NCBI GenBank assembly: GCA_001664505.1
Contig: CP011806.1
Span: 1,765,528-1,829,527, forward strand
Reading direction: 5' to 3'
Source: Acidobacteria bacterium Mor1
Lineage (GTDB): Bacteria; Acidobacteriota; Polarisedimenticolia; Polarisedimenticolales; Polarisedimenticolaceae
DNA: 64,000 bases
The translations under genes and the position numbers were made by a program. The notes beneath the pieces are model-generated. The model was not told where the DNA came from, did not search any database, and worked only from the letters and a program-made list of their open reading frames with translations. Each line of letters begins with the position of its first letter. Positions within the stretch are counted from its first letter, which is position 1. Shown here piece by piece: positions 2 through 6,284 of the stretch.

Positions 2-2875
2 GGCTCCATCGGTTACCCCGCCGAGTACACCGGTATGGCCCCGGAGGTCATCTCCGAGCTGGGCCTGTCCAAGATCATGTCGCTGACCAGCACCTACGAT
101 CACCGGGTGATCCAGGGCGCCGAGTCCGGCGCCTTCCTCCAGATCATCGGCAAGCTGATGCTGGGCGATGACGGGTTCTTCCACCGGGTGTTCCAGGAGC
201 TGCATGTCCCCCACGAGCCGGTGCTCTGGGCCGGCGACCAGAACCCCCAGGTCTTCGCCAACAGCGGCAACAGCGAGGCGATCGCCAAGCAGGCCTCGGT
301 GCTGCAGCTGATTCGGGCCCACCGGGTGCGAGGGCATCTCTACGCCCATCTGAACCCGCTGGGCTACGAGCCCCAGCCCCATCCGGAGCTGGAGCTTTCC
401 CACTACGGGCTCAGCGTGTGGGACCTCGACCGCCGTTTCATTTCCGGCGGACTTGCCGGCAAGAGCGACACCCTGCCCCTGCGGGAGATCGTCGACACGA
501 TTCGGGACACCTACTGCCGGCACATCGGCGCCGAGTTCATGCACATCACCGATCCCGAGCCCCGGCGTTGGCTGACCGACCGCATGGAAGCCTCCCGCAA
601 CGCCGAGCCCTTCGATCTCGAGCAGCAGAAGCAGATCCTGCGCAAGCTCAACGGGGCCGAGGCCTTCGAGAAGTACCTCCACACCAAGTACCTCGGCCAC
701 AAGCGCTTCTCCCTGGAGGGCGCGGAGTCGCTGATCCCGATGCTGGATTTCCTGCTGCAGGACGCAGCCCGGGACGGCGTCGAGGAAGTACTCGTCGGCA
801 TGGCCCACCGCGGGCGGCTCAACGTCCTCGCCAACACCGTGGAAAAGAGCTACGCCCAGCTGTTCGAGGAGTTCGAGGAACGCCCCGACGCCAGCACCTC
901 TCACGGCTCCGGCGACGTCAAATACCACCTGGGAAGCGAGGGCACCTTCGAGGACAAGGAAGGGCGCTCGGTCCGGGTGCGAGTGGCCTCGAACCCGTCC
1001 CACCTGGAAGCGGTCGACCCGGTCCTGGAAGGCATTGCCCGGGCGCGCCAGGACGTATCCGGAGACAAGGACCGGGAACGCATCGTGCCGGTGTTGATCC
1101 ACGGCGATGCCGCCTTCGCCGGACAGGGTGTGGTCGCCGAGACCCTCAACCTCTCGAAGCTCAAGGGCTATCGCACCGGCGGCACGGTGCACATCGTGGT
1201 CAACAACCAGATCGGCTTCACCACCGGCCCCGCCGACGCTCGTTCCTCGATGTACCCGACCGACCTGGCCAAGATGGTCCACGCGCCGATCCTGCACGTC
1301 AACGGCGACCAGCCCGAGGACGCCGTTCGGGTGATCCGCCTGGCGATGGCCTACCGCCAGCGCTTCAAGCAGGACGTGGTGGTCGACCTGGTCTGCTACC
1401 GCCGCTGGGGTCATAACGAGGCGGACGATCCCTCGTACACCCACCCGATCCTGTACGCCAACATCAACAAGCGCCGCTCGGTGCGCAAGCTCTACACCGA
1501 GCAACTGCTGCGCCGCGGGGACATCGACATCGAGACCGCCGAGAAGGCACTGGCCGACTACCACGAGCGCCTGCAAGAGGTGCACGACGAGGTCAAGGCG
1601 ATGGAGCCGGCGGAACACTGCGCCAAGGACGACGTCGCCGACGACGCCGACCGGGTCGTCATCACCTCGTCTACCGGCGAATTCGACACCGCCGTCGATC
1701 GCGAAGCCCTCGAAGAGGTGATCGCCGGCCTGCAGCGGGTCCCCGAGGGTTTCAACCTGCATCCCAAGCTGGGCAAGCAGCTGGACCTGCGCCGCACCCG
1801 CTTCGAGCAGGACAACATCGACTGGGCCCTGGCGGAGTCCCTGGCCTTCGGCTCGCTGGTCCTCGAGGGCACCCCGGTGCGGCTCAGCGGTGAGGACAGC
1901 GGCCGCGGCACCTTCAGTCAGCGCCACGCGGTGCTCTACGACTACAAGAACGCCGAACCCTACACGTCGCTGGCCAACCTGCGTGAGGGCCAGGCGCCGT
2001 TCTGGGTCTACGACAGCCTGCTGTCGGAATTCGCCGTGATGGGCTTCGAGTACGGCTACAGCGTCGAGAGCCCCGAGACCCTGGTGATGTGGGAGGCGCA
2101 GTTCGGCGACTTCGTCAACGGCGCCCAGGTGATCATCGACCAGTTCCTCGCCTCGGCCGAGGCCAAGTGGGGCCAGAAGAGCGGTGTGGTGCTGTTGTTG
2201 CCCCACGGTTATGAAGGGCAAGGCCCCGACCACTCCAGCGCCCGGGTCGAGCGCTTCCTGCAGCTCGCGGCGCGGGGCAACATCCGCGTGGTCTACCCGA
2301 GCACGCCGGCCAACTACTTCCACATGCTGCGCCGTCAGATGGTCGACCCGGACAAGAAGCCGCTGGTCGTGCTGACGCCGAAGAGCCTGCTGCGGCACAA
2401 GGCCTGCGTCTCCGCCGCCGACGAACTCTCCTCCGGCCGGTTCGAACCGTTGATCGAGGATCCCCGGGATCCGAAGCCGGACAAGGTGCGGCGGGTGCTG
2501 CTCTGTAGCGGAAAGGTCTACTGGGACCTGATCGCCGCCCAGCAGAAGGGCATGGGCGAGGACGTGGCCATCGTCCGCCTCGAGCAGCTCTACCCCTACC
2601 CCATCGACGCGGTCAACCGGATCACCGAGAAGTACGCCTCGACCCGGGAGATCGTCTGGGTGCAGGAAGAGCCGCGAAACATGGGCGCCTGGACCTTCCT
2701 GGTGCCCCGGCTGGAGCGCTGCCTCAAGCCGGGCCAGGAGCTGCGCTACGTCGGCCGCCACGGCGCGCCCAGCACGGCGACCGGCCACTTCCGGCGCCAC
2801 GAGGCGGCCCAGAAGATGCTGGTCGAGCGGGCGCTCCAGGGTGAGAGCCAACCCCTGGTCCGAGCGGCCCAGTAG
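2..2875 (+). CDS. kgd: Multifunctional 2-oxoglutarate dehydrogenase (fused E2-E1), 3' part
   Basis: The reading frame is open from the first bases, so the 5' end lies outside the window. The visible N-terminal stretch is the end of a lipoamide acyltransferase (E2) catalytic domain, with the motif STYDHRVIQGAESGAF. It leads directly into a complete E1 2-oxoglutarate dehydrogenase with its thiamine-diphosphate region (GDAAFAGQGVVAETLNLS, then VVNNQIGFTT) and C-terminal transketolase-like part. This E2-E1 order is that of Mycobacterium Kgd/SucA. The enzyme oxidatively decarboxylates 2-oxoglutarate in the TCA cycle and passes the succinyl group to lipoamide; the DHRVIQG variant of the E2 histidine motif is also that of Kgd. 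It ends about 60 bp before the promoter-like element of the next gene. Family assignment is firm; the missing N-terminal part cannot be described. Confidence 0.96.
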   Translation, partial: GSIGYPAEYTGMAPEVISELGLSKIMSLTSTYDHRVIQGAESGAFLQIIGKLMLGDDGFFHRVFQELHVPHEPVLWAGDQNPQVFANSGNSEAIAKQASVLQLIRAHRVRGHLYAHLNPLGYEPQPHPELELSHYGLSVWDLDRRFISGGLAGKSDTLPLREIVDTIRDTYCRHIGAEFMHITDPEPRRWLTDRMEASRNAEPFDLEQQKQILRKLNGAEAFEKYLHTKYLGHKRFSLEGAESLIPMLDFLLQDAARDGVEEVLVGMAHRGRLNVLANTVEKSYAQLFEEFEERPDASTSHGSGDVKYHLGSEGTFEDKEGRSVRVRVASNPSHLEAVDPVLEGIARARQDVSGDKDRERIVPVLIHGDAAFAGQGVVAETLNLSKLKGYRTGGTVHIVVNNQIGFTTGPADARSSMYPTDLAKMVHAPILHVNGDQPEDAVRVIRLAMAYRQRFKQDVVVDLVCYRRWGHNEADDPSYTHPILYANINKRRSVRKLYTEQLLRRGDIDIETAEKALADYHERLQEVHDEVKAMEPAEHCAKDDVADDADRVVITSSTGEFDTAVDREALEEVIAGLQRVPEGFNLHPKLGKQLDLRRTRFEQDNIDWALAESLAFGSLVLEGTPVRLSGEDSGRGTFSQRHAVLYDYKNAEPYTSLANLREGQAPFWVYDSLLSEFAVMGFEYGYSVESPETLVMWEAQFGDFVNGAQVIIDQFLASAEAKWGQKSGVVLLLPHGYEGQGPDHSSARVERFLQLAARGNIRVVYPSTPANYFHMLRRQMVDPDKKPLVVLTPKSLLRHKACVSAADELSSGRFEPLIEDPRDPKPDKVRRVLLCSGKVYWDLIAAQQKGMGEDVAIVRLEQLYPYPIDAVNRITEKYASTREIVWVQEEPRNMGAWTFLVPRLERCLKPGQELRYVGRHGAPSTATGHFRRHEAAQKMLVERALQGESQPLVRAAQ

Positions 2876-2933
2876 GCGGCCGGCCGGACCCTATCCCGAC
2901 CGCAGCGATCCACCGGAGTGCCCGGCGATCGGC

Positions 2934-2939
2934 TAGAAT
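2934..2939 (+). promoter_or_regulatory. Putative -10 element (TAGAAT)
   Basis: GGCTAGAAT lies 49 nt before the ATG at 2989 in the short gap after kgd. It matches a GCTANNNT pattern seen upstream of many genes in this window. I see no convincing -35 hexamer, so this is a weak call. Confidence 0.35.
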
Positions 2940-2988
2940 CGGCCTTCGTTTTTCGAATCCGATTCTCGATCCCTGGGGGGGACGCTCG

Positions 2989-3573
2989 ATGTCCGAGATT
3001 GCCTGGGCCGAATCGCTCTCGGCCGCCAAGGAGCAGGCTGCTGCCGACGGTAAGCTGCTGCTGACCTACATCTACTCACCCGGCTGACTGGGCTGCCGCC
3101 GCATGGATGCCGTGACGTATCCACAGAGTTCCGTGGCCGCCGCCCTGCAGGATTTCGCGCTCTTCAAGGTCAACATGATGGAGCGCCACCCCGACTTCAA
3201 GGAGGCCTGCGCCGGAGGCCGGGTGATGTGGGGACCGACCTTCATCGTCGCCGACGCCAAGGGTCGTGAGGTGCGCCGTTGGGTCGGCTGGTTGCCCCCC
3301 GAGAGCTACGTGGCCGAGCTCTCGTTCTGCAAGGCGCTCGCTGAGTACAACCACGGCAAGTTCGCCGAGGCACTGGCCGGGTTCACCGCGCTGGTCGACG
3401 GCGCCGTGGGCACCGAGATCCACCCCGAGGCGCTCTACTGGCAGGGAATCGCCGGCTTCATGGCCGGACGCCAGGACTGGGACGCCCTCAAGGCCTCATG
3501 GCAGCGCCTGGCCTCCGAGTACGAGGGCAACCGTTTCGCCACCCACGCCTCCGTCATCGAAGACGCTCCCTAG
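2989..3573 (+). CDS. Thioredoxin-like selenoprotein with U-x-x-C active site and TPR-like tail
   Basis: Read with the TGA at 3085-3087 as selenocysteine, this is a 194-residue protein. ATG 2989 is preceded by a G-run Shine-Dalgarno (GGGGGGGA). The N-terminal half is a thioredoxin fold: a predicted beta strand (KLLLTYIYS), then PG-Sec33-LG-Cys36-RRMD at the normal CxxC position, and the cis-proline region (MWGPTFIVAD) about 50 residues later. The C-terminal half (LAEYNHGKFAEALAGF and following) looks like one or two TPR helices pairs. Sec in place of the attacking Cys implies a thiol/disulfide or peroxide redox role in the cytoplasm; no signal peptide is visible. A SECIS-like hairpin starts 16 nt after the UGA. 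A gene finder stopping at UGA would begin at Met 3103 and lose the active site. The partner and exact substrate are unknown. Confidence 0.85.
3104..3123 (+). promoter_or_regulatory. Bacterial SECIS-like hairpin for UGA 3085
   Basis: TGGATGC (3104-3110) pairs with GTATCCA (3117-3123), seven base pairs with one G-U, closing a six-base loop CGTGAC. A G sits at loop position 2 and the loop begins 23 nt after the UGA. Bacterial SECIS elements need a G in the first two loop positions and an apical loop about 16-37 nt from the UGA, so this fits. It lies inside the coding region. Confidence 0.7.
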
Positions 3574-3575
3574 CG

Positions 3576-5126
3576 CTACTCCGGGCGGGTGCCCAGCGCG
3601 GACTTCAGCGCATCGCCGAGGTTGTTGGAGAAGCCATCCCCGGTCTGAGCCGGCATCGGTTCGGACTTGGGCTGGCGCTCCCGGCGAGGCCGGGGACGCG
3701 GCCGGGAGGTCTCCTCACCCGGCTTCGGTCCCTTCCCGGGACGGGCCAGACGGATGCGGCGGCCGCCCTCCTCGATCTCCACCACTTCGACATCGATGTC
3801 GTCACCGACAGGGAAACGGCGGGTCAGATCTTCTCCACGCTCGGTTCCGGTCCAAACGTTGGGCATCAGGCCGACCTGCCCCGGGGCGAGCCAGACGAAG
3901 ACGCCGAACTTCTCGACCTTCTGTACCTTGCCCTTGAGCGAGGCGCCCGCCTCGACGACGACCGGCTCGGCACCCTCGGCCGGAGCCGGAGCCACCGAGA
4001 TGCGCTTGCGGCCGGTGTCGACCGAGAGCACGACCCAATCGAGCTCGGTGCCGGCGTCGAGGCCTTCGCGCCAGCCGCCCGACTTCGGCGGGAACTCGCG
4101 AGCAGGAGCCAACGCTTCGAGCCCGGGCTTGAGCTCGATGAAGGCGCCGAAGTCGGCCAGACGGCGCACGATGCCCTTGTACGAAGTGCCTTCCTTGAAG
4201 TCCTCACCGACCGAATCCCACGGATCGGCCTGGGCCATCCGCGCGCTCAGGGAAATGCGTTTCCCCTCGTCGGCGATCTTGAGGATCTTGACGCTGATCG
4301 TGTCGCCGACGCTGACCGCGTCGGAGACCTTGGCGATGCGGGCGTGGGACAGCTCGGAGATATGCACGAGCCCCATCACGCCGGCGCCCAGGTCGACGAA
4401 GGCACCGAAGTCGGCGGTGCCGTTGACCCGGCCCTGCATCACACCACCTTCGACCAGGGTGGCGCGCACGGCTGCGGCTTCCTCGGCACGCTCCTCTTCG
4501 AGCAACGCCTTGCGGGAGAGGACGATGTCCTCACCGCCGCGGCGGAACTGGGTAATCTTGAACTGGTAGCTCTTGTCGATGTGCTGCTCGGGCTCGTCGA
4601 CCCGGCGCAGGTCGATCTGCGAGTGGGGACAGAACGCACGGCTGCGGCCGACGCGAACTTCGTAACCACCCTTGATCACCGCGGCGACCTTGCCCTCGAC
4701 GGGACGGCCGGCACGGAAGGCACGAGCGAGAGCGGGATCACGCGGCTTGCGCGGTTCCTTCTTCTCACCCTCCTTCTTGTCCTCTTCTTTCTTCTCACCG
4801 TCGGCAGACGCGGCAGCCGCTTCACCCTCGGCAGGCGCAGCTTCGGCGGCAAGTGCGTCGGCGCTCGCCTGGGCGGCGGGCGCAGCATCGGCAGGCGCAG
4901 CTTCCGGTGCCGGGTCGGCAGCGGGCGCTTCCGTAGCTTCGGCTGCGGGCTCCGCCGTCACGGAAGGTTCGGCCGGGGCGTCGGCGCTTGCGGCCTCTGC
5001 AGGGACCTCCGGAGTCGCCTCCACCGAAGGCGCTTCAGCAGGCGCATCCGTGGCGGGTGCGTCGGAAGCCGTCGCAGGCGGAGAAGGTTGAGAATCGGAG
5101 TTGTGCGGCTTGTTTTCTTCGCTCAC
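3576..5126 (-). CDS. S1-repeat RNA-binding protein
   Basis: A 516-residue protein starting at GTG 5126 after a G-rich Shine-Dalgarno. Residues 1 to about 125 are a low-complexity Ala/Pro/Glu leader that turns Lys-rich. Four S1-type OB folds follow: GRPVEGKVAAVIKGGYEV, GGVMQGRVNGTADFGAFV, SYKGIVRRLADFGAFIEL and ASLKGKVQKVEKFGVFVW. The C-terminus is Arg/Pro-rich and basic. The second repeat is closest to the canonical S1 consensus (GLVHISELSH). It resembles ribosomal protein S1 in repeat number but is shorter than the usual six-repeat form. A role in mRNA binding at the ribosome or in RNA turnover is likely. It converges tail-to-tail with the selenoprotein gene (2 bp apart) and diverges from the oxidoreductase gene. 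I cannot say whether it is the main S1 or a paralogue. Confidence 0.88.
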   Translation of the reverse strand: MSEENKPHNSDSQPSPPATASDAPATDAPAEAPSVEATPEVPAEAASADAPAEPSVTAEPAAEATEAPAADPAPEAAPADAAPAAQASADALAAEAAPAEGEAAAASADGEKKEEDKKEGEKKEPRKPRDPALARAFRAGRPVEGKVAAVIKGGYEVRVGRSRAFCPHSQIDLRRVDEPEQHIDKSYQFKITQFRRGGEDIVLSRKALLEEERAEEAAAVRATLVEGGVMQGRVNGTADFGAFVDLGAGVMGLVHISELSHARIAKVSDAVSVGDTISVKILKIADEGKRISLSARMAQADPWDSVGEDFKEGTSYKGIVRRLADFGAFIELKPGLEALAPAREFPPKSGGWREGLDAGTELDWVVLSVDTGRKRISVAPAPAEGAEPVVVEAGASLKGKVQKVEKFGVFVWLAPGQVGLMPNVWTGTERGEDLTRRFPVGDDIDVEVVEIEEGGRRIRLARPGKGPKPGEETSRPRPRPRRERQPKSEPMPAQTGDGFSNNLGDALKSALGTRPE

Positions 5127-5294
5127 GGGAAGCCCCCAGTGCTTGCGGACCCCTCCCCACGGAGGCGTTCGCCCGAGTTGACAGTGTTTCTATACGGTAA
5201 GGACCCTGCGCGCGCATTGTGCCATATCTGGTTCCTCGTTGAAATGTCTGTGAACTCATGACAGCGCGGGGACCGTGTGGCATCCTCGCCCGCG

Positions 5295-6284
5295 ATGAAA
5301 GCAGTGGTCATCACGGGTCCCGGCGGTCCGGAGAAACTGGCTTTTCTCGACGTTCCGGAGCCCTCCGCCGGTCCTGAAGAGGTTCGCGTTCGTGTGCGCG
5401 CATCCGCGATGAACCGTGCGGATTTGTTGCAGCGGCGAGGCCTCTACCCCGCCCCGGCAGGTGAGCCCGCCGATATTCCGGGCCTGGAGTTCGCCGGCGA
5501 GGTCGAAAGTTGCGGCGAACGGGTGCGAACCCTGAGGCCCGGCGACCGGGTGATGGGCATCGTCGGCGGAGGCGGCCACGCCGAGAAGGTGGTGCTCCAC
5601 GAGCGCCTTTGCCTCGAGGTTCCCCCCTGTCTTTCCTGGTCCGAGGCGGCCGCCGTGCCCGAGGCCTTTCTCACCGCCTTCGACGCCCTGCTGGACCGCG
5701 GACGGCTGATCCCCGGCGAGAGCCTGTTGATCCACGCAGCCGGTTCCGGCGTCGGCACCGCCGCCCTGCAGTTGGGGCTCGTCTCGGGCGCCCGGGTTGT
5801 GGCGCTGTCCCGAAGTGAGGACAAGCGGCGGCGCCTGCAGGGGATGGGTGCAGGGACGGTGCTCGATCCCTCCCATCCGCAGATCGCCCAGGAACTTCAG
5901 ATCGCTGCAGGGCCCCAGGGGATCGATGTGGTGCTGGACAGCATCGGCGCCGCGGCCTGGGAACTCAACATGTCGGTGCTCGCCGAGCTGGGCCGCATCG
6001 TGATCGTCGGCCTCCTGGGTGGAACCCGCACCGAGGTCCACCTGGGGCAGCTGCTCGCCCGACGGGCCAGCGTCGTCGGTACCGTGCTGCGCACCCGGCC
6101 GCTGGAACAACGGATGGATCTGGTGCAGCGCTTCGCCAAACAGATGCTGCCGCTGCTGGCCGAGGGGCGCCTCCGCGCGGTGGTCGACAGCGAACTGCCG
6201 CTTCACGACGCCGCCGAGGCCCATCGCCGGATGGAGAACAACGCCAACTTCGGCAAGATCGTGCTGACCGTGGGGTCCCCTTGA
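5295..6284 (+). CDS. NAD(P)H-quinone oxidoreductase, PIG3/zeta-crystallin type (MDR family)
   Basis: A medium-chain dehydrogenase/reductase of 329 residues. The start MKAVVITGPGGPEKL is typical of the quinone-reductase branch. The GroES-like part contains NRADLLQRRGLYP, and the nucleotide-binding part has the AGSGVGTAALQLG Rossmann motif. No catalytic zinc ligands are visible, so it should be a zinc-independent NADPH-linked quinone or enone reductase. ATG 5295 is chosen over a GTG at 5277 because homologues begin at MKAVV. Its TGA overlaps the TTG start of murB (TTGA), so the two are probably translationally coupled although their functions appear unrelated. Confidence 0.93.
   Translation: MKAVVITGPGGPEKLAFLDVPEPSAGPEEVRVRVRASAMNRADLLQRRGLYPAPAGEPADIPGLEFAGEVESCGERVRTLRPGDRVMGIVGGGGHAEKVVLHERLCLEVPPCLSWSEAAAVPEAFLTAFDALLDRGRLIPGESLLIHAAGSGVGTAALQLGLVSGARVVALSRSEDKRRRLQGMGAGTVLDPSHPQIAQELQIAAGPQGIDVVLDSIGAAAWELNMSVLAELGRIVIVGLLGGTRTEVHLGQLLARRASVVGTVLRTRPLEQRMDLVQRFAKQMLPLLAEGRLRAVVDSELPLHDAAEAHRRMENNANFGKIVLTVGSP

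What the first reader, a model, noticed from the sequence alone, without database searches (positions are those of the whole stretch)
2989..3573. Thioredoxin-like selenoprotein with UxxC motif
UGA 3085 falls exactly at the first cysteine of a thioredoxin CxxC motif (Sec33-L-G-Cys36), and the sequences before and after together form a complete thioredoxin fold with the cis-Pro loop. A 7-bp hairpin with loop CGTGAC, G at position 2, begins 16 nt after the UGA. A conventional gene call starting at 3103 would delete the catalytic half.
Basis: partly seen in the sequence, partly recalled or inferred. Interest (0 to 1): 0.85.

Follow-up and report, generated by a model that had tools for sequence, protein, structure and literature searches.

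The report
Selenocysteine thioredoxin with TPR tail
A gene of a soil-type bacterium (phylum Acidobacteriota) uses a UGA codon for the rare amino acid selenocysteine in the active site of a thioredoxin-like enzyme that carries a protein-binding tail; relatives occur in about six bacterial phyla, and the family is not listed as such in the selenoprotein catalogues that could be checked.

Summary
Window 2989-3573 (+) is one gene, 194 residues, with UGA 3085-3087 at the first position of a thioredoxin UxxC site (Sec33-L-G-Cys36). The genome has selA, selB, tRNA-Sec and a Sec-containing selD. Relatives carry TGA at the same place: 60 of 60 named-genome loci, 24 of 25 full-length hits in 396 genomes of the phylum, 17 of 18 loci in 395 genomes of the phylum of Gemmatimonadota locus L085. 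The two exceptions carry Cys there and lie in genomes without a selA match. The hairpin is weak evidence alone but is conserved across phyla with compensatory changes. The 'start' at 3103 is not conserved. A confident model shows a DsbD-gamma/DsbH-like thioredoxin domain plus a five-helix TPR domain. No NCBIfam family reaches its cut-off and no Trx-TPR family appears in the inventory passages read. Most likely: a cytosolic selenenylsulfide reductase whose TPR brings it to an unknown client. A CnoX-like selenium 'chaperedoxin' is the boldest open reading.

The parts
2989..3573 (+). Trx-TPR selenoprotein gene, 194 residues, ATG start, TAG stop
3085..3087 (+). UGA codon for selenocysteine 33 (UxxC)
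   Evidence: Sec machinery
3094..3096 (+). Cys36, resolving residue; invariant in A1 and A6
3104..3123 (+). bacterial SECIS hairpin: 7 bp, loop CGTGAC
2989..3297 (+). thioredoxin domain, residues 1-103 (DsbD-gamma/DsbH type)
3235..3237 (+). Pro83, invariant in A1, A3 and A6, just before strand 84-88: cis-Pro loop position
3298..3570 (+). TPR domain, five helices, residues 104-194, YbgF/CpoB/BamD-like
2975..2982 (+). purine-rich stretch GGGGGGGA 6 nt before ATG 2989, possible ribosome-binding site (weak: only GGA of the consensus)

Best explanation
A stand-alone selenoprotein gene. SelB with Sec-tRNA reads UGA 3085 as selenocysteine with the help of the hairpin at 3104-3123 (machinery shown in the genome; decoding itself inferred). 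The product is a cytosolic protein of two domains: a DsbD-gamma/DsbH-like thioredoxin fold with Sec33 at the start of the first active-site helix and resolving Cys36, and a C-terminal five-helix TPR domain (predicted with high confidence). Inferred mechanism: the Sec33 selenolate attacks a disulfide or oxidised thiol of a client held or approached through the TPR face; Cys36 resolves the mixed selenosulfide to a Sec33-Cys36 selenenylsulfide, which the cell's thioredoxin or another reductase resets. Client, electron donor and direction of the reaction are not shown. My separate estimates: selenoprotein about 0.97; thiol-disulfide reductase role about 0.65; TPR as client or partner docking about 0.6.
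For: Machinery: selB 330 bits, selA 516, tRNA-Sec 72.7, selD 358, all over their cut-offs; selD itself has an in-frame UGA. Conserved UGA: 60 of 60 loci, 24 of 25 genomes, 17 of 18 loci; these sets overlap in part. The only two full-length non-UGA members carry CKGC and lie in genomes without a selA match (G325, G686). SECIS: in 59 loci of the major subfamily synonymous variation is suppressed in codons +4 to +9 after the UGA; stem pairs 96.7% standard, 7 cells changed on both sides, 0 of 500 shuffles as high; window-type stem 94.8% paired, 3 cells changed on both sides, 13 of 500 shuffles as high. Coding before the UGA: dN/dS 0.16-0.38. Internal start not conserved. TGA is an ordinary stop elsewhere, e.g. 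6282-6284. Structure: pLDDT 92.4 for the whole, 93.3 for the tail alone; matches to DsbD-gamma and DsbH and to the YbgF TPR, TM 0.80, rmsd 1.6 over 86 columns.
Against: No expression, selenium-labelling or mass-spectrometric data. Hairpin energy is not exceptional. Outer stem pair 20-39 is not a standard pair in 3 of 11 window-type sequences. Of 20 UGA-bearing genomes given, one had no selA match (G779) and one only a fragment (G671). In the window's own class selA is present in 39 of 41 genomes anyway, so its presence beside the gene says little there. No conserved neighbour gene points to a client. Cytosolic location rests on my reading of the N-terminus, not on a predictor.
Confidence: 0.85

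Rival explanations
1. UGA 3085 is a true stop (nonsense mutation, sequencing error or pseudogene) and the working gene is the 156-residue ORF 3103-3573.
For: That ORF is what a mechanical gene list shows; the hairpin is not exceptional by energy.
Against: UGA conserved at the same place in 60 of 60 relatives; selection on the frame before it; ATG 3103 not conserved; the truncated product loses the thioredoxin match.
Confidence: 0.02
2. UGA is reassigned genome-wide or read through as another residue (for example Trp).
For: The frame is open through it.
Against: TGA ends a normal gene at 6282-6284; the position is Cys in the two non-UGA homologues; full Sec machinery.
Confidence: 0.01
3. It is a selenoprotein but belongs to the already catalogued 'thiol:disulfide interchange protein' UxxC group (PF13098/cd02953), so the family is not new.
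For: Pfam PF13098 passes its cut-off by 2.8 bits; DsbD is the top NCBIfam and PDB sequence match; that group is in the 2026 and 2022 inventories and in the GOS table.
Against: The match covers only the first ~110 residues; a TPR half is not described in the passages read; DsbD NCBIfam score 36.3 against a cut-off of 330; the GOS row for the group reads 22, 13 and 2,098, which I take as few Sec and many Cys sequences, while this family is overwhelmingly Sec. The catalogued representative WP_011366075.1 could not be fetched.
Confidence: 0.25
4. It is a CnoX-like chaperedoxin: the TPR half holds unfolded clients while Sec33 protects or reduces their thiols.
For: The two lowest Foldseek E-values for the whole model are YbbN/CnoX, 193 and 197 columns, 1.6e-6 and 2.0e-6; same order of domains (Trx then TPR); the CnoX TPR is described as two five-helix subdomains, this one has one five-helix unit.
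Against: TM to YbbN only 0.39 with rmsd over 10 (different domain placement); the TPR matches YbgF/BamD by sequence and fold; the Trx half is nearer DsbD-gamma/DsbH; only half of the CnoX TPR.
Confidence: 0.2

Closest known systems
Thiol:disulfide interchange protein selenoproteins (PF13098 / cd02953, UxxC)
   Same: DsbD-gamma-like thioredoxin domain with Sec at the first position of the CxxC site
   Different: This family has a TPR tail conserved full-length across phyla and almost no Cys members
CnoX / YbbN chaperedoxin (PDB 3qou, 3qdn)
   Same: Trx domain followed by TPR in one protein; lowest Foldseek E-values for the whole model
   Different: YbgF-like TPR, one five-helix unit instead of two, DsbD/DsbH-type Trx, Sec instead of Ser/Cys; TM only 0.39
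DsbD gamma domain and DsbH (PDB 2fwh, 2ju5)
   Same: Thioredoxin fold, Z 13.5-13.8, rmsd 2.1-2.5 over 110-116 residues
   Different: No signal peptide or membrane part seen, Sec, TPR tail
NCBIfam Trx-type selenoproteins TsoB, Trx7/PDZ, VPGUxxT
   Same: Thioredoxin-like domain, weak similarity over part of the first 111 residues
   Different: All far below cut-off for the window protein (27.6/805, 13.3/300, 11.5/275); other motifs and architectures

Membership tests
Bacterial selenoprotein | In-frame UGA aligned with a redox Cys in homologues | tested here: met
   CKGC in L157 and L181; alignment A8
Bacterial selenoprotein | selA, selB, selC, selD in the genome | tested here: met
Bacterial selenoprotein | SECIS hairpin just after the UGA, conserved as structure | tested here: met
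   energy alone is not informative
Bacterial selenoprotein | UGA conserved in several lineages | tested here: met
Bacterial selenoprotein | Selenium in the purified protein | not testable with these tools
   needs 75Se labelling or mass spectrometry
Thioredoxin-fold oxidoreductase | Thioredoxin domain over curated cut-off | tested here: met
   PF13098 29.8/27 and PF13899 29.2/27
Thioredoxin-fold oxidoreductase | UxxC/CxxC at the start of a helix and Pro before the next strand | tested here: met
   residues 33 and 36, helix 34-43, Pro83 before strand 84-88
[quoted passage not shown]
CnoX/YbbN chaperedoxin | TPR made of two five-helix subdomains | tested here: not met
   one five-helix unit, residues 104-192
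CnoX/YbbN chaperedoxin | CnoX-type TPR by sequence or fold | tested here: inconclusive
   best matches of the tail are YbgF, CpoB, BamD and other TPR proteins
CnoX/YbbN chaperedoxin | Holdase activity and hand-over to GroEL/DnaK | not testable with these tools
   needs purified protein
Thiol:disulfide interchange protein selenoprotein (PF13098, UxxC) | PF13098 domain with UxxC | tested here: met
   listing
Thiol:disulfide interchange protein selenoprotein (PF13098, UxxC) | Same architecture and branch as the representative WP_011366075.1 | not tested
   record not in the collections at hand
DsbD (NF001419) | Score over the curated cut-off | tested here: not met
   36.3 against 330

The most novel reading that the evidence does not exclude
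A selenium-dependent chaperedoxin: a cytosolic Trx-TPR protein, nearly always with Sec, that binds unfolding or oxidised clients through its TPR face and uses Sec33 to form reversible mixed selenosulfides, protecting client thiols in soil and sediment bacteria of about six phyla. Cys replaced Sec in the two sampled genomes that carry the gene but show no selA.
Probability: 0.2. Interest if true: 0.75.

Novelty: new variant of a known kind. Interest (0 to 1): 0.55.

Why it matters
Most bacterial selenoproteins are found through Cys homologues; the authors of deep-Sep say their method may miss families that lack them (passage). This family is close to that blind spot: almost all members carry UGA, so gene callers cut them at an internal start and lose the active site. 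Naming it would repair annotation in Acidobacteriota, Gemmatimonadota and other groups, add a Trx-TPR architecture to the selenoproteome, and give two natural Sec-to-Cys contrasts (L157, L181) for testing what selenium buys.

Tried and rejected
Truncated ORF from 3103: rejected. UGA reassignment: rejected. Hairpin as sufficient proof: rejected, since 74 of 1396 TGA triplets in the window have a like hairpin and energies are ordinary. Rfam on 2900-3700: nothing over gathering score. Operon clues: ORFs within 9 kb in 73 loci, clustered; the widest neighbour family touched only 6 loci, and four of five window neighbours have no match near the gene in ten loci, the fifth a 29% match in one. Promoter/terminator scan 2800-3700: none. 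First genome-contig scan with the window protein alone: 25 stretches, no relative. YbbN was not among the rows shown for the tail alone. Alignment A8 has one bad row (L180, wrong coordinates given by me); it was corrected for the tree. Literature: searches; no paper naming a Trx-TPR selenoprotein was seen in those listings or in what I read of PMC13188914 (section 7 part 2 and passages), PMC9312934, PMC2398784, PMC1794560 and PMC12013277 (passages only). CnoX features come from passages of PMC6282202 and PMC8129009. Haft and Tolstoy 2025 is not held, so it was not checked; most subscription papers are absent.

Full report
The sequence. The window is position 1,765,528-1,829,527 of a 5.985-Mb single-contig genome. 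At 2989-3573 (+) a frame starts ATG, meets one UGA at 3085-3087 and ends TAG. Reading the UGA as Sec gives MSEIAWAESLSAAKEQAAADGKLLLTYIYSPGULGCRRMDAVTYP.... The read-through protein passes the cut-offs of Pfam Thioredoxin_2 (29.8/27) and Thioredoxin_7 (29.2/27) and has a sub-threshold TPR match; the ORF from 3103 keeps only the weak TPR match and a sub-threshold remnant of Thioredoxin_2. The neighbours are a 2-oxoglutarate dehydrogenase E1 gene upstream and a convergent S1-domain gene downstream. The phylum is Acidobacteriota: same-class genomes G119 and G193 have contigs of the same length and hit position as the named records QHXX01000117.1 and QHXZ01000068.1.

Machinery. The genome has selB (330 bits, cut-off 242), selA (516, cut-off 268), tRNA-Sec (72.7, cut-off 47) and selD (358, cut-off 125). 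selD itself has an in-frame UGA. TGA is also an ordinary stop: the gene at 5277-6284 ends TTGA, overlapping the murB start.

Homologues. The window protein against 297 genomes of the phylum gave 112 genomes with some match at E <= 1e-5; most are generic thioredoxin domains over about residues 1-115. One search translated 21 of those loci: 20 carry one UGA at the active-site position, and the 21st, L039, is a Cys protein of the generic kind matched only over residues 2-120. A profile of 19 members (A1) over the 41 genomes of the class gave 10 hits at E below 1e-50 over the whole profile, all with one TGA. A profile of the window type (A3) over 396 genomes of the phylum gave 25 genomes, 24 with TGA and one (G325) without. 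A1 over 395 genomes of the phylum of L085 (titled Gemmatimonadetes) gave 16 genomes and 18 loci, 17 loci with TGA and one (G686) without. A scan of the named species genomes with a closer subset (A2) matched 164 stretches, of which 60 were confirmed as relatives, from records titled Acidobacteria (and classes of it), Gemmatimonadetes, Eisenbacteria, Zixibacteria, Armatimonadetes and Deltaproteobacteria; the tree tool labels the Deltaproteobacteria-titled L113 as Myxococcota. All 60 have TGA at the site, although one of the two search patterns required a Cys codon there. L137 among them is a degenerate copy, L138 is partial, and L090 holds a further stop. These sets overlap and must not be added up.

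The Cys contrast. The two full-length members without UGA read LHCKGCEKLETTTY (L157) and SPGCKGCQAYERETY (L181), Cys exactly at the Sec position. Neither genome gives a selA match (G325; G686). Of the 23 UGA-bearing genomes given, 23 have selA; of the 20, 18 are over cut-off, G671 has a fragment and G779 none. Caution: in the window's class selA is nearly universal (39 of 41). In a tree of 33 chosen rows both Cys proteins fall inside the window's subfamily (9 rows, 99/97), while the large SAAPxUGGC subfamily is all Sec; inner forks near the Cys rows are open, the root is arbitrary and L157 is a long branch. Loss of Sec in selA-less lineages is the simplest reading, not proven.

The hairpin. 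On its own it proves little. Its conservation does. In 59 loci of the SAAP subfamily, codons +4 to +9 after the UGA are nearly frozen at synonymous sites (GCT CGG CTG GAA/GAT GCC GAG), while most other codons vary freely (TTC and AGC before the UGA are also biased). Six stem pairs are 96.7% standard over 55 distinct rows, with 7 cells changed on both sides and 0 of 500 shuffles as high; sliding the partner drops pairing to 24-42%, though at +1 the covariation score stays close (0.084 against 0.091). The window type has another sequence, stem GGATGC/GTATCC with loop CGTGAC. In 11 sequences from several phyla 94.8% of cells pair, with double changes U-A to C-G in L058 and A-U to G-C in L022 and L182; 13 of 500 shuffles reach the covariation score.

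Coding before the UGA. Between the window and same-family genomes dN/dS in codons 1-32 is 0.16 (L021) and 0.24 (L058), and 0.38 between L021 and L058.

Structure and likely function. With 38 aligned members AlphaFold2 gives pLDDT 92.4, pTM 0.89: strand 23-29, helix 34-43 right after Sec33, Pro83 just before strand 84-88, then five helices 104-192. Foldseek's lowest E-values are YbbN/CnoX (1.6e-6 and 2.0e-6, 193 and 197 columns, TM 0.39, rmsd 10.8-11.7: same domain order, other placement), then DsbD-gamma. VIA-align puts a Bacteroides cytochrome-c-biogenesis-related domain and DsbH at Z 13.8 and DsbD-gamma at 13.5. The tail alone (pLDDT 93.3) matches the YbgF TPR (TM 0.80, rmsd 1.6, 86 columns, E 5.8e-3) and by sequence profile YbgF 8.4e-12 and CpoB 6e-10; many other TPR proteins score alike. 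I see no signal peptide in the N-terminus (inspection). I therefore read it as a cytosolic selenenylsulfide oxidoreductase docked to partners by a TPR. No neighbour gene is conserved, so the client is open.

Known or new. No NCBIfam model is over its cut-off for the window protein; the NCBIfam models that match the 38 members (scanned without regard to cut-offs) are other families. The 2026 inventory of prokaryotic selenoproteins lists a 'thiol:disulfide interchange protein' with PF13098 and UxxC, and no Trx-TPR family in the parts read. I could not compare with its representative record, so a quarter of my belief is that this family is filed there. The mechanism of Sec insertion is standard; the new part is the family and its architecture.

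Noticed in passing
L018 1501-2442 (-), own genome: selD has an in-frame UGA at residue 11 of the matched stretch (CAGUASK): selenophosphate synthetase is itself a selenoprotein here.
   Followed up: partly
G400:C1:844505-844813, G401:C379:2097-2432, G399:C89:11504-11818: Frames of about 300 residues with one TGA within a thioredoxin-domain match: possibly another thioredoxin-type selenoprotein family in the genomes of L081 (Zixibacteria), L114 (Armatimonadetes) and L088 (Eisenbacteria).
   Followed up: no
L185 (G396:C610), 966-1007: Second copy in the genome of L113 with the window-type hairpin, loop and 17-base core identical to the window's; the frame before the UGA looks broken.
   Followed up: partly
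L137 5001-5538: Degenerate copy of the gene: UGA and hairpin kept, but 8 TGA and 4 other stops in the frame.
   Followed up: no
L079-L138, codons -6 and -5 before the UGA: Codon bias also just before the UGA (Phe TTC 57 of 59, Ser AGC 43 of 51), unexplained; perhaps context for Sec decoding.
   Followed up: no
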